IMG/VR virus record: IMGVR_UViG_3300032053_000050
Coordinates: 1 to 64,000 of that record
DNA length: 64,000 nt
Source of the DNA: a virus
Direction: 5' to 3' (one strand)
This document shows, piece after piece, positions 1,964 to 25,920 of the stretch; the first letter of the stretch is position 1, and the number at the start of each line of letters is the position of its first letter. The notes under the pieces are model-generated. The model was given only the letters and a program-made list of their open reading frames with translations, had not been told where the DNA came from and did no database searches. Position numbers and translations under genes: made by a program.

Positions 1964-3172
1964 TTATTTCCATTTTTTTACAAGTTTTTTAGCTTCCATT
2001 AAATGTTTAGAAGTGTTTAACATATATTCTACTTTCTTTTCTTTATATTTATCAGAATTTTCAATTTTAGTTTTTGCCAATCCAAAATATGCAGATTTGT
2101 GCTTATCAGTTGCAAATTTAGCCCAATTACCAAAGTAAAATCCTTTTTCATCATTATATGCGTTAACTAATTCATTAACGCAATCTTCTATATAATTGGA
2201 CCAGTTAACAATAGATACTTTTACATTAGTAATAAAATCAAATGCATCTCTATCATCTTCATAGTTCAACTCAGTTATAACATCATCTAAAGTTTCATTA
2301 AGATAATTCTGAATAATAAAATCTTCTATAAATATTGAAACAGTTCTGATTCCATGTTTATGAATATACCATTCACATTTTATTTTCAACATCTGACCAT
2401 CTTCAAATTCAACTACCCAGCCCTCAATATCTTCCATTGTCTTTGCCATTTCTAGCAAATCATCAACAGAACGATATTCTTTTAATTTTTTAATACGAGG
2501 AACATTTTTGTATTTTATACTTTCTATATTTACATCTACAACTGAAACATATTCTCCATATTTATTATCTCTAAATCCGATTAAACGAAGTTCTCTTCCA
2601 GAATATTTTAAAACAATACGATTATCATAAGCTACATATTCAAACAATGGAGTAAAATCTACTTCTAACGCACTATTTATTAAATTTGCAATATCTTCTC
2701 TTTCTTCATATATTTTATTTGCAGCTAAAGACTGTTCATTATCTATACCTCCTTGAGTTTTGGCAAATATTTTTTCATTTGGCAACTTCATAAAAGCTAT
2801 TAAAGAACCATCTTCTTTAAGAGTTATATTTTTTATTTTTTTATCTTTAACTACATCATATAACGTTTCTGGTGTTTGATTTATGTTAAAAAATTTTCGT
2901 AACATCAAATATCTTCTGAATAAAGTTCCATCTTCATTGAATATGAAAGTAACTCCACGCATATCTCTTGCGTGTATAAAACGTTCGTTTTCTAATGGCT
3001 TAACGAACCAATCATATTCACACAAAAAATAATTGAATGTAACTACTTTGAAACCATCAATAATCCATTCAGTCTTATAAAAATTAAAATTCTTATAAGC
3101 TTCACAAATTCTTAATGCATCATTATAGGTTATTTGATATACGCCTTCTCTTGGAGTTAAATGTTTTATCAT
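1964..3172 (-). CDS. rnlA: T4 Rnl1-type RNA ligase
   Basis: 402 residues from ATG 3172 (an ATG three codons earlier is also open). The nucleotidyltransferase motif I is KEDGSL, with the lysine that is adenylated; upstream RGVTFIFNEDG and RYLMLRKFFN match the Rnl1 N-terminal region, and EGWVVEFEDGQMLKIK matches motifs IV/V. T4 Rnl1 reseals tRNAs cut by host anticodon nucleases, which suits a phage with a large tRNA set. The N-terminus starts MIKHLTPRE, a leader shared with four unrelated small proteins in this window. Confidence 0.88.
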   Translation of the reverse strand: MIKHLTPREGVYQITYNDALRICEAYKNFNFYKTEWIIDGFKVVTFNYFLCEYDWFVKPLENERFIHARDMRGVTFIFNEDGTLFRRYLMLRKFFNINQTPETLYDVVKDKKIKNITLKEDGSLIAFMKLPNEKIFAKTQGGIDNEQSLAANKIYEEREDIANLINSALEVDFTPLFEYVAYDNRIVLKYSGRELRLIGFRDNKYGEYVSVVDVNIESIKYKNVPRIKKLKEYRSVDDLLEMAKTMEDIEGWVVEFEDGQMLKIKCEWYIHKHGIRTVSIFIEDFIIQNYLNETLDDVITELNYEDDRDAFDFITNVKVSIVNWSNYIEDCVNELVNAYNDEKGFYFGNWAKFATDKHKSAYFGLAKTKIENSDKYKEKKVEYMLNTSKHLMEAKKLVKKWK

Positions 3173-3184
3173 TTTTAACATTAT

Positions 3185-3700
3185 TTATCTACAAAAATGA
3201 TCTGCTACATTACTTGCAATTTTTGCAAATGGTTTTCCAAAAACTTTATAACCATATCCACTTAATAAACCTAATCCCGGTGCATACATTTTATTTGATA
3301 AATTTGCATGAGAATTAGCTTCTGGAACGGAATTAAAATCTAAATGAACTTCTATTGTTTTTTTAAAAAATTCATCTTTTCCATTTACTAATTCTGCTGT
3401 TTGCAAAGCAAACTCAGCTTCTTTCCAAAGTTTAGATGGCATTTCATCTATCTGTGATTTATTTATACGTTTTTCCCACATATCACAGATTAATAGATGA
3501 CACCCATGTCCAACTTGCATTCTATCAATTTTGTGCATACAAATTATGATAGAATATTTAATTCTTCGAGAATGTACTTGACTATCACAACCTATTATTA
3601 TTTTTCCAAATGGATTTTCTACAATCCAATCTTTAACATATTTTTCTATATTATAAATAGATTCACCTGTAATTTTTTTAAATATCATTTCTTTTTCCAT
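3185..3700 (-). CDS. RNase H-like DUF458 protein
   Basis: 171 residues. The N-terminal half shows IIIGCDSQVHSRRIKYSIIICM, the typical beta-hairpin with an acidic residue of the RNase H-like DUF458 (YkuK) family, and later EVHLDFNSVPEANS supplies further acidic residues. Function in the family is unproven; a nuclease role is assumed from the fold. It lies between the RNA ligase and the peptidase with 2-3 base gaps, as part of one leftward operon. Confidence 0.75.
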   Translation of the reverse strand: MEKEMIFKKITGESIYNIEKYVKDWIVENPFGKIIIGCDSQVHSRRIKYSIIICMHKIDRMQVGHGCHLLICDMWEKRINKSQIDEMPSKLWKEAEFALQTAELVNGKDEFFKKTIEVHLDFNSVPEANSHANLSNKMYAPGLGLLSGYGYKVFGKPFAKIASNVADHFCR

Positions 3701-3701
3701 G

Positions 3702-4169
3702 TTATAGATATTTTATTTTTATTTCATCTCTTTTATTTGCCATTCCCCTTATTACCCAAACCCTTTTAGCTTTTTTCCATTTTCTTTTTTGAAGTCCTGT
3801 CCAAGATACAATTTCATCTGGAACTTTATTAATATCCATTCTTCTATTTTTTGCTTGGGCTATTTTAGAAAGAACATATGCTATTGCTCTCAATTCATAT
3901 TTTTTATTATATTGATTATATTCTTTAAGTTTTTCAATTGCATATTTTTCTGCTTCATATTCTTCTATAAATCTTGGTTTACCCATATAATGATTTAAAA
4001 CAACATGTCCTATTTCATGAAATGCTACGCCTAAAGTATCATAATCTACAATATATGGAATTTTTACTTCTCTTTTCTTTGGATCTGCCCACCCACATGA
4101 AGATTTTGACCATTGTTTAACTACAATATTATTATTTATTAATTCTTGTTCAAGTATTTTCTTTAACAT
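3702..4169 (-). CDS. Zinc metallopeptidase-like protein (HExxH)
   Basis: 155 residues. VAFHEIGHVVLNHYMG provides an HExxH zinc site, and EEYEAEKYAIEKL provides a plausible third ligand, as in ImmA/IrrE-type or SprT-like small peptidases. The C-terminus is very basic (KRKWKKAKRVWVIRG). It is the first gene after the minus-strand promoter at 4190-4218 and so likely heads the leftward operon. The target is unknown. Confidence 0.65.
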   Translation of the reverse strand: MLKKILEQELINNNIVVKQWSKSSCGWADPKKREVKIPYIVDYDTLGVAFHEIGHVVLNHYMGKPRFIEEYEAEKYAIEKLKEYNQYNKKYELRAIAYVLSKIAQAKNRRMDINKVPDEIVSWTGLQKRKWKKAKRVWVIRGMANKRDEIKIKYL

Positions 4170-4189
4170 ATTGTATATAATTGATTAAT

Positions 4190-4218
4190 GTGCAAATATA
4201 ATATAAATATTTGACAAA
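4190..4218 (-). promoter_or_regulatory. Promoter of the leftward operon
   Basis: Leftward reading gives TTGTCAAA (4217-4210) followed by TATATTTG (4200-4193), a good Bacteroidota -33/-7 pair. It sits about 22 bases ahead of the start of the HExxH gene. Confidence 0.65.
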
Positions 4219-4328
4219 ATAAAATATTTCTTAATAAAAATTTAACAACAAAACTAAAACTTATTTAAAGGACATCATAAAATTAGTGCCTAAGTCCTCT
4301 AGAAAATTGTAATTCTTGAGTCGCCTGT

Positions 4329-4353
4329 ACACGCGCGTGTCGCGTACATGTAC
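4329..4353. repeat. GC-rich double palindrome between divergent operons
   Basis: ACACGCGCGTGT (4329-4340) is a perfect 12-base palindrome, and GTACATGTAC (4344-4353) is a perfect 10-base one three bases later. Both are strikingly GC-rich for this genome and lie between the divergent promoters at 4190-4218 and 4414-4421, a likely place for an operator or a recognition site. Confidence 0.5.
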
Positions 4354-4399
4354 AATGATATTAAAAATTTTTAAATTTTTGTTAAATTATTTTTAAATG

Positions 4400-4421
4400 T
4401 CAAAAAATATATTTATATTTG
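4400..4421 (+). promoter_or_regulatory. Promoter for the 4426 gene
   Basis: GTCAAAAAA followed by TATATTTG at 4414-4421. The ATG is only five bases after the -7 box, so the transcript is probably leaderless. Confidence 0.55.
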
Positions 4422-4425
4422 TAAA

Positions 4426-5157
4426 ATGAATATGTTTATAGTTTTATTACTTTTATTTTTTGTACAAAAAAATCCTATGTTTAATAAGCATGGGTGTCCT
4501 TCTACATATGGTATAAATACATATGTTAAAAATAATGAACAAAATTTAATACAAGAATATGAATATAAAATAGATACATTATATGATATTAATATTTATA
4601 CAGAAGATTTAAGTAAAACTAGTGATGATGATTTAGGACAATTTTATATTCCTGATTATATTGTTATTACAAACTTAGAAGTATTTGCTGCTTACGAATT
4701 TCAAAATTTATCTAAATTTAAACAACAAACTATTTCATACACTGAAAGAACGGTTAAAGGCGTTATTTTTCATGAATTGACACATGCTTATTTTTATCAA
4801 ACAGTGATAATTATGAGAAATGAAAATAAAACGGTTTCTCCCGAATATAGTACATTTAAAATGTACTCAACTGCTTCTATGAAATTTAGTGTAGATTTTA
4901 TAGAAGAAGGAATTTGTGAATATGTTATACACAATTTAAAAGAATCTGCAAAATTGAAAAATATTGTTATTCCTGAAACTGAAGCAGATCTATTAGATAA
5001 TAAAATAAATACGTTATATTGTTATTCAGTATATTTTTTACAAGATTTTTTGGATAAGCAAGGACTTAAAAAAGGAATGGAAATATTAATAAATAATAAA
5101 CCACCAACATTAGAAGAAATACTTAAACCTGAATTATTTTTTAAACGTCTAAAATAA
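4426..5157 (+). CDS. Secreted zincin-like metallopeptidase
   Basis: 243 residues with a hydrophobic N-terminus (FIVLLLLFFVQ) that reads as a signal peptide or membrane anchor. GVIFHELTHAYFY is an HExxH zinc motif, followed about 55 residues later by IEEGICEYVIHN, where a Glu could be the third ligand (gluzincin pattern). It probably acts outside the cytoplasm; substrate unknown. It is followed seven bases later by a LamG-like lipoprotein gene. Confidence 0.65.
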   Translation: MNMFIVLLLLFFVQKNPMFNKHGCPSTYGINTYVKNNEQNLIQEYEYKIDTLYDINIYTEDLSKTSDDDLGQFYIPDYIVITNLEVFAAYEFQNLSKFKQQTISYTERTVKGVIFHELTHAYFYQTVIIMRNENKTVSPEYSTFKMYSTASMKFSVDFIEEGICEYVIHNLKESAKLKNIVIPETEADLLDNKINTLYCYSVYFLQDFLDKQGLKKGMEILINNKPPTLEEILKPELFFKRLK

Positions 5158-5164
5158 ATTTTAT

Positions 5165-5995
5165 ATGAAAAAAATATTTTATTTTCTAATAATAGCTTTA
5201 ATAGGTTGTGAAAAAATACCAAATATTATATATAATTATCCTACAAGAGGATTAGTATCTTATTATTCTTTTGATAATTATTCAATTTTGGATTGTTATG
5301 GAAATAATAATGGGTGGACAGAACATGATACAATTACTCCTCCGGGATGGAGTTTTGGAAATGGAATTATAGGACAAGATTTTATGACAAATTCTGAATT
5401 ACACACTCTGCATGATCATAAACATGTACTCAGCATATATAATGAAATTGATAAAAATCTACATTCAAATTTAATTAATAATCCATTTTCTGTATCCTTA
5501 TGGTTTAATTGTACAAGTTGGTGTAGTTTATTAGAATCTGCTGGAATAATAATGTGGGGACAAAGTCAAACTGATATTTCAATGTCTTTAGATATATATG
5601 GAGGCATACCTTCATTAGGATATTTGGCACTAAAGTTTAATAATATTTATTTTTTTAATAATTTTGATTCTCCTGAAGCTAGTAATTGTCTTGTTTCGTA
5701 TAAATATTATATAGGTACATCTTGGCATCATATTGTAATGACATATGATGGTAAAATGATGTTTTTATATATAGATAATGTTTTAGAAGATAGTAAAGAA
5801 AGAGTATCAATAAAAGAAGTAAATAGCATATCTTTAGGAATTGGTAGTTTTTATTATTTTCCAGGTGAAATAGATGAACTTTATTTTTACAATGTTTGTT
5901 TAACAAACTATGAAATATCACAATTATATAATATAGAAATAGGAGATAATCCAGAACTTCCAACATCTTTAAAATTTGATTATTTAAATAATTAA
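5165..5995 (+). CDS. LamG-like (concanavalin fold) lipoprotein
   Basis: 276 residues. The N-terminus MKKIFYFLIIALIGCEK has a lipobox (ALIGC), so it is probably a lipoprotein. The rest matches a laminin-G/concanavalin-like domain: GLVSYYSFD at the start, PFSVSLWFNC, WHHIVMTYDGK, YIDNVLEDS and PGEIDELYFYN at the end. Such domains bind sugars or mediate adhesion. In a phage this could alter the host surface or belong to a lysogenic-conversion-like set; that is inference. Confidence 0.75.
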   Translation: MKKIFYFLIIALIGCEKIPNIIYNYPTRGLVSYYSFDNYSILDCYGNNNGWTEHDTITPPGWSFGNGIIGQDFMTNSELHTLHDHKHVLSIYNEIDKNLHSNLINNPFSVSLWFNCTSWCSLLESAGIIMWGQSQTDISMSLDIYGGIPSLGYLALKFNNIYFFNNFDSPEASNCLVSYKYYIGTSWHHIVMTYDGKMMFLYIDNVLEDSKERVSIKEVNSISLGIGSFYYFPGEIDELYFYNVCLTNYEISQLYNIEIGDNPELPTSLKFDYLNN

Positions 5996-5997
5996 AA

Positions 5998-6582: not shown

Positions 6583-6587
6583 ATTTT

Positions 6588-6615
6588 TTTATATCAAAAA
6601 ATATGTTTATATTTG
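6588..6615 (+). promoter_or_regulatory. Promoter for the P-loop kinase gene
   Basis: TTTATATCAAAAA followed by TATATTTG at 6608-6615, the same phage-wide pattern as at 28.1, 38.8 and 53.6 kb; start codon at 6631. Confidence 0.6.
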
Positions 6616-8943: not shown

Positions 8944-9642
8944 ATGAAAATAGTATTTAATACAGAAAATATGTCATTATTAAATGCCTTTATAAAGACG
9001 CATAAAGAAAATGATGTGCAAATAATTGTTGGTAAAATAGAATCTGTATTATTTGAAAATATTGAAAATGGTGATGCCGAAGCTTATATAATTTCAAGTA
9101 GTTGTACATTTGCAAAAAAAGCTATATCTTTTATTAAAAAATTCAACCCTCATATTCCTATACTTTTATTAATAGAAAATATATTAGATTATAGTGAAGA
9201 ATGGAAAACAGATATTAACGTAGATATAATAATGTCTGAAACTTGTGAAAGTGATATTATTCTTTCCAAAATGATTTATTTCAATATTAATACATACATA
9301 AAAAATTTTGAAACTCTTCATAAACTTACTGCAAAAACACATGATAAGATAGAATTTGGAAATTGTATATATGATCCTACACGAAGAATTTTATATTATA
9401 AAGATAAAGAAATTAAAGAACTTTCTCCAAAAGAAGGAGGAATTCTTGAAATACTTGCTCTTAATTTTGAAAAAATTGTAAAAAAAGAAGTTATTCTTGA
9501 AAAAGTTTGGCGAAAACCGAATGATTATTTTGCTGGAAGATCTATGGATGTTTATATAACTCATCTTAGAAATACACTTAAAAATAATAAAATAAAACTT
9601 ACAATTAAAAATATATCTAGTATAGGATTAATTCTTGAATAA
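8944..9642 (+). CDS. OmpR-like regulator with degenerate receiver domain
   Basis: 232 residues. The C-terminal half is a winged-helix Trans_reg_C domain (ELSPKEGGILEILALN, ILEKVWRKPNDYFAGRSMDVYI, THLRNTLK). The N-terminal half has receiver-like alternation (IPILLLIENIL) but no obvious phospho-acceptor Asp or acidic pocket, so it probably works without phosphorylation. It may control phage or host promoters. A 56-base piece of this gene (9353-9408) is repeated exactly at 10000-10055. Confidence 0.75.
   Translation: MKIVFNTENMSLLNAFIKTHKENDVQIIVGKIESVLFENIENGDAEAYIISSSCTFAKKAISFIKKFNPHIPILLLIENILDYSEEWKTDINVDIIMSETCESDIILSKMIYFNINTYIKNFETLHKLTAKTHDKIEFGNCIYDPTRRILYYKDKEIKELSPKEGGILEILALNFEKIVKKEVILEKVWRKPNDYFAGRSMDVYITHLRNTLKNNKIKLTIKNISSIGLILE
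9353..9408 (+). repeat. 56-bp exact direct repeat, copy 1
   Basis: Bases 9353-9408, inside the winged-helix gene, are identical to 10000-10055. The copy encodes FGNCIYDPTRRILYYKDK in both places. Two such long exact copies about 650 bases apart indicate a recent duplication. Confidence 0.9.
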
Positions 9643-9643
9643 T

Positions 9644-10021
9644 ATGGCAATAAAACATTTGGGGTGGTATACATCACCAGAATTAAAAGAAAAAGATACA
9701 CTCCCATTTTGGAAAAAAAGAGAGATGTTAATAAGTCCTTTTATAATTCCTATAGGTATAGGGTACGCTATATTTTATGTATTATACGCATTATATTTTA
9801 TAATAAAATGGATATTGTTTGCTTGGATATCTCCTTTCATTTATTCACCTATATTTTGTAAAATAGGGTTCCATAAATATAGAGCCTTAGATGAAGAAAG
9901 ATATAGATGTTTGCTATGCCAAAATAAAATAGGGGTCCATAAATATAGAGCCTTAGATGAAAAAAGATATAGATGTTTGCTATGCCAAAAAGAATACACA
10001 ATTTGGAAATTGTATATATGA
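9644..10021 (+). CDS. Two-TM protein with duplicated zinc-ribbon, MAIKHL leader
   Basis: 125 residues from ATG 9644 (chosen because it gives the MAIKHL leader shared with four other proteins; an ATG at 9635 is open). A hydrophobic segment at about residues 33-65 would cross the membrane. The C-terminus holds HKYRALDEERYRCLLCQ twice, encoded by a 66-bp tandem duplication starting near 9863. The last residues (EYTIWKLYI) are encoded by the 56-bp repeat, so the natural C-terminus was probably changed. It is paralogous to the 10565 protein. Confidence 0.6.
   Translation: MAIKHLGWYTSPELKEKDTLPFWKKREMLISPFIIPIGIGYAIFYVLYALYFIIKWILFAWISPFIYSPIFCKIGFHKYRALDEERYRCLLCQNKIGVHKYRALDEKRYRCLLCQKEYTIWKLYI
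9863..9990 (+). repeat. 66-bp tandem duplication
   Basis: Two near-identical units beginning ATAGGG at 9863 and 9929 encode consecutive copies of a Cys-containing zinc-ribbon segment. They differ at only a few positions, so the duplication is young. Confidence 0.85.
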
Positions 10022-10055
10022 TCCTACACGAAGAATTTTATATTATAAAGATAAA
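10000..10055 (+). repeat. 56-bp exact direct repeat, copy 2
   Basis: Exact copy of 9353-9408. It straddles the end of the MAIKHL gene and supplies the upstream sequence of the next gene (start 10065). Confidence 0.9.
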
Positions 10056-10064
10056 TGTTTTACC

Positions 10065-10559
10065 ATGAAAAAAATAATCATCATTTTACTTTTATTAATT
10101 TGTTTTGTAATTGATATTTTTTCTCAGAGAAATATTTTAGTCATAACTTTTACTAATGTTGATTGTATGTTTGGGTTACAATATACTAGAAAAATTCCTT
10201 ATAAATTAAGTGTTTCTTATGAAAAATCATTTTTTAAATCAATGGGATTATATGTAAACAGTTCTTATGGAATATATAAAGGTGATCATAGTGCAAAAGC
10301 TAATCATATAAAAACTGGAATAGGAATCACAAAATTTATTAGAAATAATAATGGAGTTACAGCTACTACTTTTTCAGGAGGCATAATAGGACATTATTAC
10401 TTTAATATTGATCAAGGTGCTTATCATATAACAGAATATGATATTTTTCCAGCTTCTTTAGAATTAGGAATGGGAGAAATAATTAATCAAGTTAATTTTG
10501 ATTTTAAAATGGATCCTATAAAAAATTCACTTATATTTACTTTTGGAATTTTATTTTAA
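10065..10559 (+). CDS. Secreted, probably outer-membrane barrel-like protein
   Basis: 164 residues from ATG 10065; an earlier ATG at 9957 would put an internal hydrophobic signal peptide after material encoded by the duplicated repeat, so it is rejected. The signal peptide is MKKIIIILLLLICFVIDIFS. The rest has alternating beta strands with glycine/tyrosine (YVNSSYGIYKG, ATTFSGGIIGHYYF) as in small outer-membrane barrels. No family named. Confidence 0.65.
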   Translation: MKKIIIILLLLICFVIDIFSQRNILVITFTNVDCMFGLQYTRKIPYKLSVSYEKSFFKSMGLYVNSSYGIYKGDHSAKANHIKTGIGITKFIRNNNGVTATTFSGGIIGHYYFNIDQGAYHITEYDIFPASLELGMGEIINQVNFDFKMDPIKNSLIFTFGILF

Positions 10560-10564: not shown

Positions 10565-10906
10565 ATGGCAATAAAACATTTACCCGGATTTACATCTGAA
10601 GAAATAAAAAAACTCAATCCTGATATTCCTTTTTATGAAAGACGGGAAATTTGGATGAGCCCATTAGCTATACCTTTAATAATTGGTTTTATAATATTTA
10701 TTACTTTTTTAGGATTTTCATATGCCTTTAAATGGATTTTTTTATCATGGATAGTGCCATTTGTTAATTGGAAATGGTTCTGTAAAATTGAACTCCATAA
10801 GTATAGGAAAATAGAACAAAAAATAGAACAAAGAATAGAACAAGATTTTCAACCTAAATATGTGTGTATAGTTTGTAAAAAAGAAAAATTTCAAGCCATT
10901 TATTAA
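10565..10906 (+). CDS. Membrane protein with MAIKHL leader and C-terminal zinc-ribbon
   Basis: 113 residues, a paralogue of the 9644 protein: same leader (MAIKHLPGFTSEEI), same FYERREIWMSP linker, one long hydrophobic segment (residues about 38-70) and a C-terminal HKYRK...YVCIVCKKEK Cys pair. A short EQKIEQRIEQ micro-repeat lies in the ribbon. Function unknown; zinc-ribbon on the cytoplasmic face is likely. Confidence 0.6.
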   Translation: MAIKHLPGFTSEEIKKLNPDIPFYERREIWMSPLAIPLIIGFIIFITFLGFSYAFKWIFLSWIVPFVNWKWFCKIELHKYRKIEQKIEQRIEQDFQPKYVCIVCKKEKFQAIY

Positions 10907-11173: not shown

Positions 11174-12295
11174 ATGAAACAATATACAATAGAAAAATTA
11201 GAAAAAGAAAATTTAATAATATTTTCTGTTATAACAGGGTCTTATGCTTATGGAACCAATATTCCTACTTCAGATATAGATATACGTGGAATATTTATAC
11301 AGCCGCTTAATGATATACTTGGTTTTGGAAAAATAGATCAAGTTTCAGATGAAACGAATGATATAATATATTACGAAATAGGAAGATTTCTAGATTTATT
11401 AAAAAACAATAATCCAAATATTTTAGAAATCATAAATGTTCCAGTTGATTGCATAAAAATAATGCATCCAATAATGAAACAAATATTTGATCTTAAAAAT
11501 GAATTCATAACTAAAAAATGCCGTTGGTCATTTGGTGGTTATGCTATAGAACAAATAAAAAAAGCTCGTGGTCTTAATAAAAAAATGAATTGGGAAGAAA
11601 CCCAAATGGTTCGTAAAACAGTTCTTGATTTTTGTTATGTTCTTGTTGGTGGTGGATCAATGCCATTCAAAGAATGGATAAACGCACAAATAGATTACAG
11701 AGATCTTAACAAATGTCTTAATGGAAATAGAGTATTATTATCTCAAACTGATATAGGACTTGCTGCAGTAGATCATTTTCATGATTTATATGTTATGTAT
11801 GTATCTCCAAATTTTGAAAAATGGGGAGTAGTTTCAGATGAAGATATAGCTAATGATGTTCAACTTACATCAATACCAAAAGATTTAGAAGTTAAAGGTT
11901 CTCTTTATTTTAATAAAGACGGTTATTCTGTTCATTGTAAAAAGTACAAAAAATTTCAAGAATGGAAAGCTAATCGTAATGAAACTCGCATAAACATGGT
12001 TAAAGAACATGGAAAGAAATACGATGGAAAAAATTTAATGCATACTTTTAGACTATTAGAAACAGCGCTTGAAATAGCCGAAGGAAAAGGAATTAATGTT
12101 AGAAGAAATAATATAGAAAAACTTTTAGCTATACGAAAAGGAGAATACGAATATGATGATTTGCTTATTGAAGCTGAAGAATTAATACAAAAAATGGATG
12201 TTGTATTTAAAAAAAGTAATTTACCCGAAAACACTGATATAGATATTGTAAATACGTTGCTTATAAATATGCGTAAAGAGTGGTATAAAATATAA
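11174..12295 (+). CDS. RlaP-like DNA polymerase beta-superfamily nucleotidyltransferase
   Basis: 373 residues. The N-terminal GSYAYGTNIPTSDIDIRGIF is the hG[ST]...DxDxR core of the polymerase beta/RlaP nucleotidyltransferase family. Family members are found in many large phages and are suspected to act in RNA repair or tRNA end modification, but this is not established. In this window it would add to the ligase/kinase/phosphatase set. Confidence 0.8.
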   Translation: MKQYTIEKLEKENLIIFSVITGSYAYGTNIPTSDIDIRGIFIQPLNDILGFGKIDQVSDETNDIIYYEIGRFLDLLKNNNPNILEIINVPVDCIKIMHPIMKQIFDLKNEFITKKCRWSFGGYAIEQIKKARGLNKKMNWEETQMVRKTVLDFCYVLVGGGSMPFKEWINAQIDYRDLNKCLNGNRVLLSQTDIGLAAVDHFHDLYVMYVSPNFEKWGVVSDEDIANDVQLTSIPKDLEVKGSLYFNKDGYSVHCKKYKKFQEWKANRNETRINMVKEHGKKYDGKNLMHTFRLLETALEIAEGKGINVRRNNIEKLLAIRKGEYEYDDLLIEAEELIQKMDVVFKKSNLPENTDIDIVNTLLINMRKEWYKI

Positions 12296-12299: not shown

Positions 12300-12595
12300 A
12301 ATGTATTCAGGATGCATTTTCAAAAAGTAGAAAAGGCATTGTTTTTTCACAAATACATAAAGATAATATAGGTGAAAAAACAAAAGAAGCAATGAAAAAA
12401 ATAGAAATCTATAATTCAAGAAAAATTAATTGTTATGATATAAACAGAACATTTTTACATCAATATAAAAGTATAACTGAAACTGAACGAATATTAAAAA
12501 TTAATAAAACGCCTATAATTAATTCATGCAAGCGATTAAAAACTAGATTAAAAGATTACATTTTTAGATATAATGATGATGATGAATTTAAATAA
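12300..12595 (+). pseudogene. Homing-endonuclease remnant (NUMOD3-NUMOD1 tail)
   Basis: An open frame from about 12318 (AFSKSRKGIVFSQIHKDN, NUMOD3-like) runs into a 67-codon ORF starting at ATG 12392. That ORF encodes INCYDINRTFLHQYKSITE...ILKINKT, a NUMOD1 DNA-binding domain of homing endonucleases. No catalytic domain is present upstream, so this is the DNA-binding tail of a decayed endonuclease. Confidence 0.7.
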
Positions 12596-12600
12596 AAATA

Positions 12601-13023
12601 ATGGCAATAAAACATTTATCACCTAGAACTAAAGAAGAAGTTTGGGATAAGCTAACTACTAGGGAAAAACATAGTTTCGAAGCAAAACAACGAAAACAAC
12701 CATATAAAAAATATCCTATGGGCTATAAAACCATGAGAGTTCTTGAAATGATTTTAAATGGAAAAAATATTACAAAATCAGTATTAACATTTTTATATGA
12801 ATTATCTTATGGGAAAGGATCATACGATGCTTTCAATAGTGGTTATTGGAGTGAAGCTACAGGATTATGGGAATGCATTAACAAAACTCAATCACTTTGG
12901 ATTAAAGAAAATGATGGAATTTCTAGATCAGCTTATTTCTATACTATCAATGAAATAGGGATGGTAAAATTAGAAAAATATAAACAAAAATTTCAAAATC
13001 TAAATATAGAATCTTACATATAA
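12601..13023 (+). CDS. Uncharacterised protein with MAIKHLSPR leader
   Basis: 140 residues starting MAIKHLSPRTKEEV, the leader shared with proteins at 3172, 9644, 10565 and 25735. The body is mixed alpha/beta with MGYKTMRVLEMILNGKN and a late YTINEIGMVKLEKY, which could be a winged-helix DNA-binding fold. No catalytic motif seen. It sits five bases after the homing-nuclease remnant and three bases before the Nudix gene. Confidence 0.6.
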   Translation: MAIKHLSPRTKEEVWDKLTTREKHSFEAKQRKQPYKKYPMGYKTMRVLEMILNGKNITKSVLTFLYELSYGKGSYDAFNSGYWSEATGLWECINKTQSLWIKENDGISRSAYFYTINEIGMVKLEKYKQKFQNLNIESYI

Positions 13024-14057: not shown

Positions 14058-14933
14058 ATGGGATACGGGACATATTCAACAATTAGTAGAGATCTAAGAG
14101 CAACCTCTCTTGGATATACTACAAAATCTGCTCATGAAATTTTTAAATCAAAATCTATTAACAATGCTATGAATCCAAATGGCATTGTTCTTCGTGAGTC
14201 AAGAGATTCTACAGAACATCCAAATGCTTTACCTATTATTATTGCGTTAGATGTAACAGGTTCTATGGGAACTGTTCCTCATCAATTAGTTAAAGATGGT
14301 TTACCAACTCTTGTAACAGAAGTTATTAAAAATGGTCAACCAGATCCACAAATTTTATTTTTAGCTATTGGAGATCATGAGTGTGATAATTCTCCTTTAC
14401 AGGTAGGACAGTTTGAATCAAGTGATGAACTTTTAGATAAATGGCTTACTGATGTTTATCTTGAAGGTGGTGGTGGTGGAAACTCTGGTGAAAGCTATCT
14501 TTTAGCTTGGTATTTTGCAGGTTATCATACAGCAACAGATTCTTTTGAAAAAAGGAAAGAAAAAGGATTCTTATTTACAATTGGAGATGAACCTACTCTT
14601 AAATATATTCCAAAAGGAGACATTAAAGAAATTATGGGTGATGGACAATATGAAGAATTTTCTGCTGCTGCACTGTTAGATAAAGCAAGAGAAACTTATA
14701 ATGTATTTCATTTACATATAAGACAAACTGGAGCTGGACAACGTCAAGAAACTATGGATGGATGGAAACAATTAATGGGTGAGAATTTAATAGTTATTGA
14801 AAGACATACAGATGTTGCAGATGCAATTACAAAAATTATAACTAAACATTGTGAAAAACCAAAAGTTTTAAAATCTAAAAAGGAATCTAAAAAAGAAGAA
14901 ATAGATGAATCTTCTATTGAAATAATTCTTTAA
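14058..14933 (+). CDS. VWA-domain protein
   Basis: 291 residues. IIIALDVTGSMG is a MIDAS motif (DxTxS type) and GESYLLAWYFAG, FLFTIGDEPTL follow as in von Willebrand A domains. A basic/acidic tail ends ESKKEEIDESS. VWA proteins form metal-dependent protein contacts; a second VWA protein here is Ro60 (35504). The stop overlaps the purA start by one base. Confidence 0.75.
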   Translation: MGYGTYSTISRDLRATSLGYTTKSAHEIFKSKSINNAMNPNGIVLRESRDSTEHPNALPIIIALDVTGSMGTVPHQLVKDGLPTLVTEVIKNGQPDPQILFLAIGDHECDNSPLQVGQFESSDELLDKWLTDVYLEGGGGGNSGESYLLAWYFAGYHTATDSFEKRKEKGFLFTIGDEPTLKYIPKGDIKEIMGDGQYEEFSAAALLDKARETYNVFHLHIRQTGAGQRQETMDGWKQLMGENLIVIERHTDVADAITKIITKHCEKPKVLKSKKESKKEEIDESSIEIIL

Positions 14934-16102
14934 TGAAAAATTTAGCTATAGTAGGTCTAGGGTTTGGGGATGAAGGTAAAGGTACAATAACTGATTATCT
15001 TTGTTCCCAATGTTCTAATCCATTAGTTATAAGATATTCCGGTGGACATCAAGCCGGTCATACCGTTTATTATAACAATAAACACCATATTTTTTCAAAC
15101 TTTGGTTCAGGAACTTTACGAGGAGTTCCTACATTCTGGTCTAAATATTGTACAGTAGACCCTATAGGAATAATGAATGAACTTAGTGTTCTAATGAGTA
15201 TAGGTATTTTTCAACCTAAATTATTTATTGATCCAGATAGCCCAATAACTACTCCTTATGATAAATTTTATAATCATAATACTGAAACTTCAAATCACCA
15301 TGGAAGTTGTGGTGTAGGATATGGAGCTACTATTGAAAGAGAAGAAAAACATTATTCATTAACTTTCAGTGATTTATTTTATAGTGATATTTTTAAGATT
15401 AAGCTTAAAATGATTGAAAAATATTATTATAATATATTTGATAAAAATTATACACAATATCCATATCTTGATAATTCAATTCTAGATCAAATGATTAAAG
15501 ATTTTAATATATATTGTGATCAATTAAAACAATTATCTTTTATTGAACAAAAATCATTATGTGAAGTAATTTATTCAGACTATATTTTTGAAGGTGCTCA
15601 AGGAATTTTATTAGATCAAAATATGGGATTTTTTCCCCATGTATCTAGATCTAATTCAGGAACTAAAAATATTATTGAATTAATAGGAAAAACAAATCAA
15701 AAAGATATACATTATTATCTTGTAACACGTGCTTATCAAACTCGTCACGGTAATGGTCCTATGACTAATGATAAAAGAGGTCATAGTATTATTGAAAATC
15801 CTGATGAAACTAATATTAATAGAAAATGGCAAGGGAAATTTAGACGTTCATTGCTTGATTTAGATTTAATTCAATATGCTATTAATAAAGATGAAGGTCT
15901 TAGAAATTCTAAAAATAAAACATTAGTAGTTACGTGTTTAGACCATATGAAAAATGATTATAGATTTACACATAAAGGAGAAATAGTAGCATCAACTTCT
16001 GAAGAAGAATTTATAAAAGTTATTTCAAATATTTTAGGAATTTATATATTATTTATAAATGATTCTCCTGATTCTAAAACTTTTAAAAAAATATTCTTAT
16101 GA
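14933..16102 (+). CDS. purA: Adenylosuccinate synthetase
   Basis: 389 residues. GFGDEGKGTITDYL is the GTP-binding loop with the catalytic Asp of PurA; GGHQAGHTVYY, GSGTLRGVP and FEGAQGILLDQNMGFFP with RSNSGTKN follow in the order of the family. Somewhat shorter than the usual ~430 residues. Cellular PurA makes adenylosuccinate from IMP and Asp; phage PurZ relatives make the 2-aminoadenine precursor. The retained GDEGKG Asp favours PurA, but I cannot exclude an altered base pathway. Confidence 0.85.
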   Translation: MKNLAIVGLGFGDEGKGTITDYLCSQCSNPLVIRYSGGHQAGHTVYYNNKHHIFSNFGSGTLRGVPTFWSKYCTVDPIGIMNELSVLMSIGIFQPKLFIDPDSPITTPYDKFYNHNTETSNHHGSCGVGYGATIEREEKHYSLTFSDLFYSDIFKIKLKMIEKYYYNIFDKNYTQYPYLDNSILDQMIKDFNIYCDQLKQLSFIEQKSLCEVIYSDYIFEGAQGILLDQNMGFFPHVSRSNSGTKNIIELIGKTNQKDIHYYLVTRAYQTRHGNGPMTNDKRGHSIIENPDETNINRKWQGKFRRSLLDLDLIQYAINKDEGLRNSKNKTLVVTCLDHMKNDYRFTHKGEIVASTSEEEFIKVISNILGIYILFINDSPDSKTFKKIFL

Positions 16103-20817: not shown

Positions 20818-20819
20818 TT

Positions 20820-21689: not shown

Positions 21690-22294
21690 CACAATCACAA
21701 GAGAATTTTAATAAATCTTTAGTATATATTAAACGAAAAGGTATAGAAAATTTAGTAAATTGGTTAACATCAGAAACAGATTTTTTTACTGCGCCATCTT
21801 CAGCTATTTATCATGGTAATTTTGAAGAAGGCTTATTACAACATTCTTTAAACGTACTTTCTTTTGCTCTTAATAATTTTAATTATATAGTTAAAAGAAA
21901 ACCTGAGTATGAATATTTAAGAGAGTCAGTAGTTATTGCAGCACTATTTCATGATGTTTGTAAAACAAACTATTATGTAAAACAAAATAAATGGACTAAA
22001 GATGAAAATAATAAATGGAAAGAATATCTTGGTTGGACTGTAGCAGATACATTTCCTATGGGGCATGGTGAAAAAAGTATTTATCTTATATCTAAATATA
22101 TTGAATTAACCGAAAGTGAAGTTTTAGCTATACGATGGCACATGGGAATGTATGATATTTCTCCTACAGCATCAAATTTTACGCTAAATGCGTATAATCA
22201 AGCTTCTTCACATCCCCTTGTTAGAATAATTAACTCAGCAGATTCTTTAACTTTAATAGTAGAAGAAACAGTAGATTATAAAAATTTACATTAG
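21686..22294 (+). CDS. HD-domain hydrolase
   Basis: 202 residues. HSLNVLSFAL, ALFHDVCKTNYY (His-Asp), HGEKSIYLI and IRWHMGMYD form the H...HD...H...H metal set. A related fragment of its C-terminus is encoded again at 22513-22596. The present stop is a TAG, rare in this window. Function may be nucleotide or nucleic-acid hydrolysis. Confidence 0.75.
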   Translation: MTQSQENFNKSLVYIKRKGIENLVNWLTSETDFFTAPSSAIYHGNFEEGLLQHSLNVLSFALNNFNYIVKRKPEYEYLRESVVIAALFHDVCKTNYYVKQNKWTKDENNKWKEYLGWTVADTFPMGHGEKSIYLISKYIELTESEVLAIRWHMGMYDISPTASNFTLNAYNQASSHPLVRIINSADSLTLIVEETVDYKNLH

Positions 22295-22309
22295 GTACTA
22301 AAATACATC

Positions 22310-22510
22310 GTGGCTCCTTTGGTATATATTAAAAATGGAAATAATTTTTTTATATCAAAAAATGATCCCAGATATTTATCGGGTGAATTAATCCATCATT
22401 TTAAAAATACAATATTAGTTAAAGATAAAAATGGAAAAGCAATGAGAGTTAAAAAAAATGATCCTCGATATTTATCTAAAGAATTAGTGGGTATTCGTAA
22501 AAAAATGTAA
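22310..22510 (+). CDS. NDPRYLSGEL-repeat protein, homing-endonuclease-associated
   Basis: 66 residues with two copies of a unit ending K(K)NDPRYLSGEL / KKNDPRYLSKEL. I know this unit as a flanking module of phage NUMOD3-type endonucleases. Here no nuclease domain follows. It lies between the HD gene and a second copy of that gene's 3' end, so it looks like the residue of an endonuclease insertion. Confidence 0.5.
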   Translation: MAPLVYIKNGNNFFISKNDPRYLSGELIHHFKNTILVKDKNGKAMRVKKNDPRYLSKELVGIRKKM

Positions 22511-22512
22511 AA

Positions 22513-22596
22513 ATGGTATTATTAGTAAAAATTATTAGTACTGCTGATGTACTTGCTGTAGGTTTAGAAGACACAATTGACTATAAGAATAAGTAG
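22513..22596 (+). pseudogene. Displaced duplicate of the HD-gene 3' end
   Basis: 27 codons, LVKIISTADVLAVGLEDTID then YKNK, align with the end of the HD protein, LVRIINSADSLTLIVEETVD then YKNLH. This is a diverged copy of the gene's last exon-like piece lying beyond the inserted 22310 ORF. Confidence 0.6.
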
Positions 22597-22658
22597 ACAT
22601 ATATGTTAATAATTTTTAATATTTTATTAATGAATATATAAAATAAAATACTAAAAAA

Positions 22659-23546
22659 ATGAAGAATTTAGTTCGTGAATCTATTATTAATGAAACTACA
22701 GAATTTAAAGATATAAAAAGAATAAAAGATTTATTTCATAGAAGTAAAGGAAGTGATTCTAAATTACTTCAATTAACACAAAATATGGCTAATTCTATAG
22801 ATGATATAGATAAAGCACAAAGACGAGCTGAAGCTGCTTGGGAAATACTTGGAAAAGAAGATAATCCAATTGCTGATATTTTCTTAAAAAGAATAGAAGA
22901 ACTTAAAGACAGCAGCAAAACATTAAAACCTAAACAAACAATTAATTTTTCAAAACCTATTTCAAAAATACCTGATAAAAATCCAGAACCTGATTACGAT
23001 AATTTAACAAAGAATTATGGTAATTATGTTAGTAAAAAACAAGGAGTCATTTATCTACCATCTTACTCGGCTATTGCTCTATGGGATTGGGAAATAACCG
23101 GACAATTATCTGATGGAGCTTGGGAAAACTCAAAACCTGATGATCATTATAAATTTTGGTGTAATCTTTTACCACGTTTAGGCATTCCTGAAGTTAAATC
23201 CAGAGGTAGATGTAAAAAAGACGGATACAACTTAACAGGATTAATTGAATACGTTGGTGATAGAATGGTTCAATATGGTAGATTTGGAAAGGCTGCTGGA
23301 GAAGAAATTTTAAAAATGGGTGGAGAAGTTAGATCAACTGTTGAAGATTTTCCAAAAGAAGGCCCTTTTAATCTTGAAGAATGGAAACAAAAGCAAATTA
23401 TAGGAAAAGATTGGCGTGCAAAAGATTATTATTGGGTAGGTTTAGAACAAAAACATATAGATGCATTTTATAATACAAAATATGATGAAAAAGATATGAG
23501 AAAAGATCTTTCTTATATTAAAGAAGCTATGAAAAAAAGAAGATAA
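22659..23546 (+). CDS. Uncharacterised 295-residue protein
   Basis: N-terminal ~110 residues are charged and helical; from about residue 125 a globular domain (GVIYLPSYSAIALWDWEITG, FWCNLLPRLGIPE, YYWVGLEQKHIDAF) follows. No family recognised. It is eight bases ahead of the papain-like protease gene, so they may act together, for instance as substrate and protease. Confidence 0.55.
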   Translation: MKNLVRESIINETTEFKDIKRIKDLFHRSKGSDSKLLQLTQNMANSIDDIDKAQRRAEAAWEILGKEDNPIADIFLKRIEELKDSSKTLKPKQTINFSKPISKIPDKNPEPDYDNLTKNYGNYVSKKQGVIYLPSYSAIALWDWEITGQLSDGAWENSKPDDHYKFWCNLLPRLGIPEVKSRGRCKKDGYNLTGLIEYVGDRMVQYGRFGKAAGEEILKMGGEVRSTVEDFPKEGPFNLEEWKQKQIIGKDWRAKDYYWVGLEQKHIDAFYNTKYDEKDMRKDLSYIKEAMKKRR

Positions 23547-23553
23547 AAATACT

Positions 23554-24336
23554 ATGGATTTTACTAAATATAAATTTAATCTTGAAAAATCTCCAACTGA
23601 TCCACGAGATTTTATGCTTGAAGCTATTTATCCTAATATAGTAGTTCTTCCAGAAACATATGATATGCGATCTCAATTACAAACAGTTAGAGATCAAGGA
23701 CAACAAGGAACGTGTTCAGCACAAACAGCTGGCGCTATTAAAGAATGGCAGGAAAAAATCGATGTTCAATTTGATGAATATATGTCTCCACAGTTTGTTT
23801 ATAATTTAAGAACAAATCAACAGAGTGAAGGGATGACTCCAAGAGATACGATGGAAATTCTTTATAAAATAGGAATTGTTCCTGAAAAAAGTTATCCTTA
23901 TGGAACATTTAAAAAAATCACAGCTCCACTTTTAAAAGAAGCTGAACAATTTAAAATTCAGGGATATGCTCAAATTAATACAATAGATTCTCTTAAAAAG
24001 GCACTTTTTGCTAATGGCCCTTGTTATATTGCTTTTCCAGTTTATGATCCTGAAAAAATGGATTTTTGGAAACAACAATTTATAAATCAACCAATGCTTG
24101 GAGGACATGCTGTAACAGTAACTGGATTTTTAAAAGATAGTTTTATTATAAGAAATTCTTGGAGTTCTCTGTGGGGTGATAGCGGATATACTTATCTTCC
24201 TTATACTGATTGGGGATGTCAATGGGAAGTATGGACATCAATTGATGCTAATTCAAATCCAGAAACTCTTAAGAAAAAAGCTGAAAATTATATTAAAAAA
24301 AGAGGTTTTTTCAAAAGAATATTTGGTATAAAATAA
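23554..24336 (+). CDS. Papain-like (C1A) cysteine protease
   Basis: 260 residues. VRDQGQQGTCSAQTAGA contains the oxyanion Gln and the catalytic Cys (GTCSA in place of the common GSCWA), GGHAVTVTGF the His, and RNSWSSLWGDSGY the Asn. The propeptide-like N-terminus is short. No signal peptide, so it likely works inside the cell or in the virion. C1 proteases are unusual in phage; target unknown. Confidence 0.85.
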   Translation: MDFTKYKFNLEKSPTDPRDFMLEAIYPNIVVLPETYDMRSQLQTVRDQGQQGTCSAQTAGAIKEWQEKIDVQFDEYMSPQFVYNLRTNQQSEGMTPRDTMEILYKIGIVPEKSYPYGTFKKITAPLLKEAEQFKIQGYAQINTIDSLKKALFANGPCYIAFPVYDPEKMDFWKQQFINQPMLGGHAVTVTGFLKDSFIIRNSWSSLWGDSGYTYLPYTDWGCQWEVWTSIDANSNPETLKKKAENYIKKRGFFKRIFGIK

Positions 24337-24346
24337 TAAAATTACT

Positions 24347-24529
24347 ATGAAAAAAATGGTAAATGAAAGTTTAAAAGATGAATTAATAGCACGATTAATG
24401 TCAACATTATTTAAAGATGATGATCCTAAACATTATGATTCAAATATTAAATATTTAGAATCATTATCTTTTGAAGATATAGAAGAAATGATAGTTGATT
24501 ATAATATGCATGGAATTACAATGAAATAA
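24347..24529 (+). CDS. Small uncharacterised protein
   Basis: 60 residues, acidic and helical (ELIARLMSTLFKDDDPKHYD). Ten bases after the protease gene. No family recognised. Confidence 0.45.
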   Translation: MKKMVNESLKDELIARLMSTLFKDDDPKHYDSNIKYLESLSFEDIEEMIVDYNMHGITMK

Positions 24530-24535
24530 TATAAG

Positions 24536-24823
24536 ATGCAGCAACATTTTTTTCAAACATTTTTTGGTCCAGGAACGCAAATAGTGCAAAATGAAGATCC
24601 TGTTTTAGAATATATAATACATAATGAAACTATTTTAGAAATAGTAAATAATTGGCCGTTTGTAAGGTGGATGATGGATAGACATAGACACGGAGAATTA
24701 AAACAAGTAGATCAAATGGAACAACTTTGGATTAATTTTATTTCTCGACACAATATTGATATAGAAAGTTTTAAAAATAATAAAGATTTTCTCAAAGTAT
24801 TTTGGAAAAATCCTATAAATTAA
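24536..24823 (+). CDS. Small uncharacterised protein
   Basis: 95 residues with several aromatic residues (MQQHFFQTFFGPG, NNWPFVRWMMDRHRHG). Probably an operon member with the genes on either side, six bases from each. Confidence 0.5.
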   Translation: MQQHFFQTFFGPGTQIVQNEDPVLEYIIHNETILEIVNNWPFVRWMMDRHRHGELKQVDQMEQLWINFISRHNIDIESFKNNKDFLKVFWKNPIN

Positions 24824-24829
24824 AAAATT

Positions 24830-25048
24830 ATGAAAAATAACGATTTTGTTCCAGTTAAAAAAATTCTGAATATTATTAATTCATGTAATTCCGAAGAACA
24901 ATTAGAAAATTGTAATATAGTAATTAAAAATTATGTTAATTCTGTAAAGAAAAAAGGGGTAATTAATTATAATGAATTAGAAAATAGATTAAATGAAGAA
25001 CTATTACAAAGACAAGAAGCTTTATATCTTGTTAAGATTTTTACTTAA
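24830..25048 (+). CDS. Small helical protein
   Basis: 72 residues, predicted all-helical (NNDFVPVKKILNIINSCN...). No family recognised; last gene before a 325-base gap. Confidence 0.45.
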   Translation: MKNNDFVPVKKILNIINSCNSEEQLENCNIVIKNYVNSVKKKGVINYNELENRLNEELLQRQEALYLVKIFT

Positions 25049-25122
25049 TTTAAAATTTTTTAACAAAGTATTAACATTCTCTTATAAAACTTTTATAATT
25101 TATTGTGATATATAATTAAAAA

Positions 25123-25227
25123 ATGATGATATTAAATTATACATATACTCAACAACCCCAACTCATAACCTTTTATGAGCCACAATCATTATGTCTATTT
25201 GAGAACACGGAGGGAAGAATGAAGTAA
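25123..25227 (+). CDS. Possible 34-residue ORF in the gap before a terminator
   Basis: The gap 25049-25373 holds an ATG-started 34-codon frame (MMILNYTYTQQPQLITFYEP...) ending at 25227, a CTCATAA/TTATGAG hairpin inside it, and a clear terminator. Coding status is uncertain. Confidence 0.3.
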   Translation: MMILNYTYTQQPQLITFYEPQSLCLFENTEGRMK

Positions 25228-25266
25228 GTATAAAGAATATCATACACTATATTTTAACACTTATTA

Positions 25267-25298
25267 AAAAAACCCTCCAATGAAACGGAGGGTTTTTT
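25267..25298 (+). terminator. Rho-independent terminator
   Basis: AAAACCCTCC / GGAGGGTTTT stem with loop AATGAAAC and a T-tract. It closes the long rightward operon that runs from about 19 kb. Confidence 0.85.
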
Positions 25299-25334
25299 AT
25301 TTTTAATAATATTTTAACAACAACAGTTGTTAAT

Positions 25335-25357
25335 AGTTCTTTGAAATGTTTATATTT
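25335..25357 (+). promoter_or_regulatory. Promoter (and boxA-like sequence) before 25374
   Basis: AGTTCTTTGAAATG at 25335 resembles the rRNA-leader boxA of Bacteroidota; TATATTTG follows at 25350-25357, 17 bases ahead of the ATG. The order (boxA before the -7) suggests that here the TTTG is only part of the promoter. Confidence 0.4.
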
Positions 25358-25373
25358 GTAAAAACAATTTATT

Positions 25374-25571
25374 ATGGCAAGTAGTATAAAAGGTACATCA
25401 GGTGAAAGTTTAGCAGACGTAGTAAGAAACGTAAACGATACTTTAAAAGCAGCAGGAAAATTTGGATTGGAAGTAGAAACTATTGCAACAGCTTTATTAT
25501 TTCTTAAAGAAAATCCAACAATGACAATAGAATATGCATTACATGTAGGACTTCAAGATTGGGATGTATGA
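25374..25571 (+). CDS. Small conserved-looking protein
   Basis: 65 residues (MASSIKGTSGESLADVVRNV...ALHVGLQDWDV), a short helical bundle by appearance. Coupled to the next gene through ATGA. Function unknown. Confidence 0.5.
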   Translation: MASSIKGTSGESLADVVRNVNDTLKAAGKFGLEVETIATALLFLKENPTMTIEYALHVGLQDWDV

Positions 25572-25738
25572 CATCATTTTATTTTTATATACCAAAAGAT
25601 ATATCAACACCTTATATTATAGATGTTAATAAATCAGATGGAAGAAAAATAATAGAATGGTTAAATGGAAATACAACGTTTTATCATTTTTTACAAAAAC
25701 AAAGATTTGGCAAGCTATATAATATAATACGGCAATGA
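25568..25738 (+). CDS. Small uncharacterised protein
   Basis: 56 residues (MTSFYFYIPKDISTPYIID...), with overlaps of ATGA type at both ends, so translation is coupled from 25374 through 25920. Confidence 0.45.
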   Translation: MTSFYFYIPKDISTPYIIDVNKSDGRKIIEWLNGNTTFYHFLQKQRFGKLYNIIRQ

Positions 25739-25920
25739 TAAAACATTTAACGCCAAGGTCTAAAGAAGAATTAGATAAACTTCCGCCTTACGTAGAAATA
25801 CTATATGTTCCAGGATTACGAGGACCTTTTGGAATGCCAGGAAATAGAGGAACAGAAGGTCCAGTAGGAATTCCAGGAATAGAGAGTTATATTAGAAAAA
25901 TGAAAACTTATAAAAAATAA
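25735..25920 (+). CDS. Collagen-like mini-protein with MIKHLTPR leader
   Basis: 61 residues. Leader MIKHLTPRSKEELDKLP is the same as in the RNA ligase and three others. Residues 32-52 are Gly-X-Y repeats (GLRGPFGMPGNRGTEGPVG, then IPG), i.e. six or seven collagen triplets, followed by a basic tail. Phage collagen repeats usually trimerise fibre proteins; here the piece is far too short for a fibre and lies next to a tRNA array. Confidence 0.6.
   Translation: MIKHLTPRSKEELDKLPPYVEILYVPGLRGPFGMPGNRGTEGPVGIPGIESYIRKMKTYKK

What the first reader, a model, noticed from the sequence alone, without database searches (positions are those of the whole stretch)
3157..25750. Shared M(A)IKHL N-terminal leader on five unrelated proteins
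RNA ligase (3172, MIKHLTPRE), two membrane zinc-ribbon proteins (9644, 10565), an unknown (12601, MAIKHLSPRTKEE) and the collagen-like mini-protein (25735, MIKHLTPRSKEE) begin alike, with ATG(GCA)ATAAAACATTT at the DNA level, while the rest is unrelated. It may be a protein sorting tag (for instance to virion or a phage compartment), a protease-cleaved leader, or a mobile translation-start module.
Basis: seen in the sequence. Interest (0 to 1): 0.72.

Follow-up and report, generated by a model that had tools for sequence, protein, structure and literature searches.

The report
Lineage-specific protein tag in giant phages
The shared protein start is real: it is the second half of a two-part peptide that giant phages of Bacteroidota-type hosts attach, in a wording particular to each lineage, to dozens of unrelated proteins, probably to sort them into the virus particle and/or to a fixed place in the infected cell.

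Summary
All five M(A)IKHL starts exist; they are every IKHL in the six-frame translation of the window (null mean 0.035). Two are paralogues (9644, 10565), so four are independent.

Two more genes at the record's end carry it behind an extra upstream half: MRARFIYE-AIKHLSPRS and ..NINE-AIKHLSPKSEEEI. Relatives show a bipartite peptide: part A, M[KR]x..[ILV]xE, then part B, worded by lineage: IKHLSPRSxEEI; DILKPKSxEEI; IKHLLKPKSEEEI; or KFxEESDPIxDMGIG (45 copies in one 405-kb contig). It sits at N-termini and at in-frame junctions inside long ORFs. The residue before B is nearly always Glu, often in an [ILV]xE context, the T4 gp21 cleavage motif, and relatives encode a gp21-like protease. The window's five genes start exactly where that cut would leave the chain.

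RNA ligase and helicase orthologues exist with and without the tag, so it is a gained module. Internal copies and varied codons refute a translation-start element.

Best reading: A is a T4-like capsid-targeting propeptide; B is the retained mature tag. Cleavage and destination are inferred. B's role on proteins lacking A is open.

The parts
3137..3172 (-). B-only leader MIKHLTPREGVY on T4-type RNA ligase (ORF 1964-3172; alternative start 3181)
   Evidence: Pfam RNA_lig_T4_1 E 8e-22; orthologues in G001 (60%), G004 (53%), G012 (33%) lack it
1964..3172 (-). RNA ligase (Rnl1 type), cargo
   Evidence: phrog_562 E 2.5e-53, Pfam PF09511
9644..9691 (+). B-only leader MAIKHLGWYTSPELKE
   Evidence: weak to the independent profile (E 1.2), paralogue of 10565
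9644..10021 (+). putative membrane protein with CxxC motifs, cargo
   Evidence: sequence; no significant family
10565..10612 (+). B-only leader MAIKHLPGFTSEEIKK
   Evidence: independent profile E 0.0055
10565..10906 (+). paralogue of 9644, putative membrane protein, cargo
   Evidence: 33% identity over 88 aa, E 4e-14
12601..12648 (+). B-only leader MAIKHLSPRTKEEVWD
   Evidence: independent profile E 1.8e-5; DNA island shared with the G013 40173 start
12601..13023 (+). cargo whose C-terminal domain matches the C-terminal domain of A-leader proteins in G005 and of a G008 protein
   Evidence: tblastn E 5e-12 and 7e-9, N-termini
25735..25782 (+). B-only leader MIKHLTPRSKEELDKL
   Evidence: independent profile E 1.6e-5
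25735..25920 (+). collagen-like mini-protein, cargo
   Evidence: Pfam Collagen E 0.001 (below cut-off), phrog_8981 E 3e-5
22659..22694 (+). part-A leader MKNLVRESIINE on ORF 22659-23546
   Evidence: homologue in G008 (109875) also has an A leader
22629..22658 (+). late-promoter-like element AATATATAAAATAAA upstream of the A-leader gene
   Evidence: the same element precedes sheath, tube and protease-scaffold genes in relatives
24347..24379 (+). possible part-A leader MKKMVNESLKD on ORF 24347-24529
   Evidence: weak profile match, E 0.4

Best explanation
The five starts are copies of part B of a bipartite, lineage-specific peptide tag. In the full form, part A (M[KR]xxx[ILV]xE) acts like a T4 capsid-targeting propeptide: it takes the protein into the prohead core and is cut after Glu by the gp21-type prohead protease. 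Part B (here [A/S]IKHLSPRSxEEI) becomes the N-terminus of the mature protein. Inside long ORFs the same [ILV]xE|B junction would be cut to release several tagged units. B-only genes, including the window's five, encode the already-cut N-terminus directly, so proteins delivered by the virion and proteins made in the cell end up with the same N-terminal address, read by a phage partner that has co-diverged with it. Tags spread between genes as short DNA modules. Shown: the bipartite structure, lineage wording, internal copies, gain on conserved enzymes, Glu/[ILV]xE context. Inferred: cleavage, packaging, and above all B's partner and destination.
For: B is preceded by Glu in 16/16 copies (G012/14/15), 31/38 (G008/9), and 10 of 13 in G000+G013 under a pattern not requiring Glu, the other 3 being start Met. 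In the SDPI lineage 61/64 copies have [ILV]xE just upstream against 9.4% in random windows. T4 gp21 cuts after L/I-X-E and T4 CTS are 10-19 residue propeptides (PMC9026906); SPN3US gp53/54 share the N-terminus MANFVKSKLARESVE and its protease cuts after AXE (PMC5694885). gp21-like PF03420 in G004, G005, G011 and, below cut-off, in four Mahaphage records, fused to scaffold-like repeats, 'YSEYIAEN' in the latter; such sites are enriched there over shuffles. LR756500 leaders such as MKYIQTYKDFLIES resemble T4 IPIII MKTYQEFIAEA. A leaders share a late-type promoter with structural genes (15/78 vs 126/1781, p 5e-4). Lineage wording: 45 SDPI copies in G005, none in G000/G013/G008/G012/14/15. Helicase orthologues carry B in G008 and G013 in each genome's own wording, none in six others.
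Against: No proteomics. Only 1 of 12 B-only genes has the late-type promoter, so virion delivery of the window's five is not supported by timing. RNA ligase and helicase are not typical virion proteins. The RNA-ligase copy matches over only about eight residues. The protease was not found in G000 or G013 (fragments); G008 and G015 hits are short, possibly divergent paralogues. Lineage wording can also come from copies spreading within a genome, without a co-evolving partner. T4-likeness p-values are biased because leaders were chosen by a related pattern.
Confidence: 0.5

Rival explanations
1. B alone is the packaging signal: it binds the prohead core, and part A only adds a cut site. B-only proteins (RNA ligase, helicase, membrane proteins) are packaged uncut and injected.
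For: B is the most conserved part within a lineage; P1 DarB shows that an N-terminal signal within 30 residues suffices for packaging (PMC9024508); RNA ligases of two Mahaphages carry A-type CTS-like leaders, which fits virion delivery of an RNA-repair enzyme.
Against: B-only genes mostly lack the late-type promoter; many A-leader proteins have no B (G001, G003, G011), so B is not needed for whatever A does.
Confidence: 0.25
2. B is a small N-terminal domain of an ankyrin-type protein family that spread by duplication, fusion and truncation; its presence on other proteins is hitch-hiking without a sorting role.
For: Many tagged proteins are ankyrin proteins; 12601 shares a C-terminal domain with A-leader proteins, one with ankyrin-like sequence; DNA islands show recent copying.
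Against: Cargoes are otherwise unrelated; residues persist while synonymous codons vary; two phages keep B on the same helicase in different wording; Glu before B is kept at internal junctions.
Confidence: 0.17
3. A DNA- or RNA-level translation-start element.
For: Identical ATAAAACATTT at five starts in an AT-rich genome.
Against: In-frame internal copies deep in long ORFs; Ala GCA/GCC/GCG, Leu TTA/TTG/CTT, Ser TCA/TCT/AGC, Arg AGA/AGG vary; lineage wordings differ at the amino-acid level.
Confidence: 0.03
4. A stability or degradation tag (N-degron-like or protease adaptor signal) that sets the lifetime of early proteins.
For: Acts at the N-terminus; would fit B-only enzymes made in the cell (inference only).
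Against: Does not explain the [ILV]xE context or polyprotein junctions; no recogniser identified; not tested here.
Confidence: 0.05

Closest known systems
T4 capsid-targeting sequence (CTS) of internal proteins IPII/IPIII, cut by gp21 (PMC9026906)
   Same: Short N-terminal peptide shared by otherwise unrelated proteins; Glu at the predicted cut in an [L/I/V]xE context; gp21-family protease in relatives; in some relatives (LR756500) the sequence itself resembles MKTYQEFIAEA.
   Different: Here a second conserved part follows the predicted cut; copies also sit at internal junctions; up to 45 copies per contig; the wording changes by lineage; some genes have the second part alone.
Propeptides of SPN3US/phiKZ head and ejection proteins (PMC5694885)
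   Same: Giant phages; cut C-terminal to Glu; two diverged proteins with an identical 15-residue N-terminus.
   Different: Most of those propeptides are over 100 residues, on virion head proteins, and no conserved tag after the cut is described in the passages read.
P1 DarB N-terminal capsid signal (PMC9024508)
   Same: N-terminal signal within 30 residues that packages anti-restriction cargo.
   Different: No consensus shared among Dar proteins; no lineage-wide tag.

Membership tests
T4-type CTS (full A+B peptide of the group) | Short N-terminal peptide shared by otherwise unrelated proteins | tested here: met
T4-type CTS (full A+B peptide of the group) | L/I-X-E cleavage motif at its end | tested here: met
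   61/64 with [ILV]xE against 9.4% background; Val is also used, and G012/14/15 mostly have YNE
T4-type CTS (full A+B peptide of the group) | Phage encodes a gp21-family prohead protease | tested here: met
   PF03420 over cut-off in G004, G005, G011; not found in the fragment G000
T4-type CTS (full A+B peptide of the group) | Sequence similarity to MKTYQEFIAEA | tested here: inconclusive
   Good for LR756500 and Mahaphage leaders, marginal for MRARFIYEA types (selection bias)
T4-type CTS (full A+B peptide of the group) | Proteins packaged in the virion and propeptide removed | not testable with these tools
   needs virion proteomics
T4-type CTS (the five window leaders) | Cleavable part ending in x-x-E upstream of the mature chain | tested here: not met
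   All five start at B; what precedes IKHL is Met or Met-Ala
Translation-start module | Occurs only at start codons and is conserved at DNA level | tested here: not met
   Internal in-frame copies; synonymous variation
Pfam DUF6794 | Score above gathering cut-off | tested here: not met
   16.4 bits against cut-off 27.1

The most novel reading that the evidence does not exclude
Giant phages of this group run a genome-wide protein address code: one short peptide per lineage, placed on dozens of unrelated proteins either directly or exposed by prohead-protease cutting (also of polyproteins), read by a co-evolving phage receptor that gathers virion-delivered and newly made proteins at one site in the infected cell.
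Probability: 0.3. Interest if true: 0.92.

Novelty: new variant of a known kind. Interest (0 to 1): 0.74.

Why it matters
If right, many orphan accessory proteins of these phages can be sorted by sequence alone into predicted virion-delivered effectors (A or A+B) and cell-made proteins with the same mature start (B-only). In G005 41 ORFs would fall in the first set. It would make a testable list of injected proteins, extend the T4 CTS idea to giant phages of Bacteroidota-type hosts with a much larger cargo, and offer a peptide handle for loading proteins into very large capsids. It also shows a lineage-specific tag that changes wording while keeping its slot, which suggests a receptor to look for.

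Tried and rejected
Exact IKHL[ST]PR back-translation in viral contigs gave nothing; the wording is nearly private to this phage and G013. Search with the 12601 protein in viral contigs and in phage records: no relative. Leader peptides against 50,697 phage records: one chance hit at E 9, then none. MIKHL-coding starts in Mahaphages were three tiny frames and one unrelated MIKHLKK protein. DUF6794 considered and dropped. Lak phages (tube 47% identical), sampled over 200 kb with TAG=Gln: no clear leader family. AlphaFold models of a G013 tagged protein (pLDDT 36) and of the RNA ligase (46.8; leader coil at about 30) were too poor to use; no fold search was run. Late-promoter idea for B-only genes tested and not supported. 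MNHQKVYESI-type hits in A-pattern scans look like HNH endonuclease starts and were not taken as leaders. No paper describing such a tag was found in the searches made; most subscription journals are not in that library.
Full report
WHAT WAS CLAIMED AND WHAT IS THERE. ATAAAACATTT occurs five times in the window and IKHL five times in six frames, all at these starts; a second-order Markov null yields 0.035 such starts per window. 9644 and 10565 are paralogues, so four cargoes are independent: RNA ligase (phrog_562, Pfam RNA_lig_T4_1), a small putative membrane protein pair, 12601, and a collagen-like mini-protein.

THE RECORD HOLDS MORE. The window is 64 kb of a 71,802-base virus record. Beyond the window, the ORF at 70668 begins MRARFIYEAIKHLSPRSVES, the next at 71090 begins MRVRFINEALTEP, and the last (71671, cut by the record's end) begins MNLVPKNINEAIKHLSPKSEEEIRSSFKNLSPQEKLETGSEEGL. 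So IKHL[ST]P[RK]S has an upstream half in these genes. Inside the window, 22659 starts MKNLVRESIINE, an upstream half without IKHL.

RELATIVES. The tail-tube-like protein at L007:8418 finds 69 loci in IMG/VR, on contigs up to 405 kb; the nearest named phages by that protein are the Lak phages (47% identical). I read large parts of fifteen contigs. They carry a bipartite N-terminal peptide on many proteins. Part A is M[KR]xxx[ILV]xE[SAN] (MRAKFIYES, MKAKLVKES, MKKLVRES). Part B differs by lineage: IKHLSPRSxEEI in G000 and G013; [IV]xDILKPK[ST]xEE[IL] in G008 and G009; IKHLLKPKSEEEI in G012/14/15; KFxEESDPIxDMGIG in G005, G001, G006, G007, with 45 copies in the 400 kb of G005 read and none in G000, G013, G008 or G012/14/15. 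A profile made only from G012-G015 finds G000 71671, 70668, 25735, 12601 and 10565 with E from 5e-10 to 0.006 in six frames; shuffled and reversed controls give nothing below 0.77; 9644 and the RNA ligase are not significant on their own. The G008/G009/G012 profile finds 71671 at E 1.6e-9 and 70668 at 0.0013.

PLACEMENT. Part B occurs (i) behind part A at N-termini, (ii) inside long ORFs at junctions, for example ..RTIVNES-IKHLSPRSEDEI in a 585-residue ankyrin-plus-phage-lysozyme ORF of G013, five SDPI copies in a 918-residue ORF of G001 and three in one G005 ORF, and (iii) alone at the start: the window's five, G013 MAIKHLSPKTPEEI and MIKHLSPKSPDEL, G008 MSIENILVPKT, MALIDDVLKPKS, MGMTDILKPKS. 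In (i) and (ii) the residue before B is nearly always Glu, and in the SDPI lineage 61 of 64 copies have [ILV]xE just upstream against 9.4% in random windows. The B-only proteins therefore start where a cut after Glu would leave the others.

MODULARITY. RNA ligase: G000 has MLKMIKHLTPREGVYQITYNDALRICEAYK, the 60% identical G001 protein starts MTYQLTYNDAIKLCEAYK; G004 and G012 orthologues also lack the leader, while Mahaphage orthologues in LR756502 and LR745206 have CTS-like leaders MKKLHRYNSFIKES and MKLFKYIEFINEN. Helicase (phrog_2488 E 5e-110): eight orthologues; B only in G008 (MGMTDILKPKSKDEL) and G013 (MIKHLSPKSPDEL), each in its genome's wording. blastn between G000 and G013 shows short islands at leaders, e.g. 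12594-12629 against a G013 gene with unrelated cargo. After removing 30 residues, tagged cargoes of G000, G013 and G008 show only three related pairs: the two window paralogues, the two helicases and one G008 pair. Codons vary at conserved residues. So the tag moves as DNA but is kept as protein.

LINK TO HEAD ASSEMBLY. T4 internal proteins carry a 10-19 residue CTS that takes them into the core; gp21 cuts after L/I-X-E (PMC9026906). T4 IPII and IPIII start MKTYQEFIAEA, and LR756500 leaders such as MKYIQTYKDFLIES and MKYIKEYEDFINEA align well with it, with the caveat that they were picked by a related pattern. gp21-like PF03420 is over cut-off in G004, G005 and G011 and below cut-off in four Mahaphage records (clade from PMC7162821); the proteins continue into scaffold-like repeats, YSEYIAENLDKNI in Mahaphages, with more [LIVFY]xE[SNAG] sites than shuffles there; in G004/G005/G011 the excess is within the shuffle range. 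A promoter-like element AATATATAAAATAAA precedes sheath, tube and protease-scaffold genes and is enriched before A leaders (15/78 against 126/1781, p 5e-4), but not before B-only genes (1/12). In the giant Salmonella phage SPN3US, two diverged head proteins share MANFVKSKLARESVE, and its protease cuts after AXE (PMC5694885).

HOW IT MOST LIKELY WORKS. Part A is a CTS-like propeptide (inferred, about 0.6-0.65). Part B is the mature N-terminal tag (placement shown; function inferred). B-only genes encode that mature start directly. The promoter result suggests B-only proteins are not mainly late virion proteins, so B may address proteins within the infected cell; the alternative that B itself packages them is the main rival. 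Ankyrin proteins are frequent cargo, most other cargo is orphan.

LIMITS. No experiment, no complete genome of the window's phage, simple ORF calling instead of a trained gene finder, pattern-based class assignment, and two poor structure models. The host group is inferred from a PorP/SprF protein and from the hosts of relatives (PMC7162821).

Noticed in passing
window 53644-54618: PorP/SprF type IX secretion membrane protein (Pfam PF11751 E 7e-54) encoded in a phage record, next to a 1911-aa tail-like ORF.
   Followed up: no
window 14933-16102: PurZ-like protein (phrog_1211, adenylosuccinate-synthetase type, E 3e-59): possible diaminopurine DNA; partner genes not checked.
   Followed up: no
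window 1964-3172, 11174-12295, 35504-37219: RNA-repair-like set: RNA ligase, RlaP-type nucleotidyltransferase, and a TROVE/Ro-like protein.
   Followed up: no
window 53086-53385: tmRNA-like call with tag GENSYKLQMAA among 25 tRNA calls; it overlaps a tRNA call.
   Followed up: no
L007:3796-5832 (record 63796-65832): TerL-like ORF preceded by intein-like sequence ending ..TFYSNDIVSHN right before the ATPase region: probable intein in terminase.
   Followed up: no
window 8944-10559: Local partial duplication: GNCIYDPTRRILYYKDK of ORF 8944 recurs in ORF 9957, and HKYRALDExRYRCLLCQ is doubled within 9644-10021.
   Followed up: no
G005:263745 (-): Another collagen-like protein with an A-like leader, MKNYVRASLLTEGISGSVGPVGQPG, similar in kind to the tagged collagen-like mini-protein of the window.
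   Followed up: partly
G008:186562, G011:194916, G015:93025: Short PF03420-like frames (about 150-170 aa), possibly divergent prohead-protease paralogues as described for SPN3US.
   Followed up: partly
G001, G003, G008, G011, G013, G000: Conserved late-promoter-like element [GA]A[AT]TA[AT]ATAAAATAAA before virion genes.
   Followed up: partly
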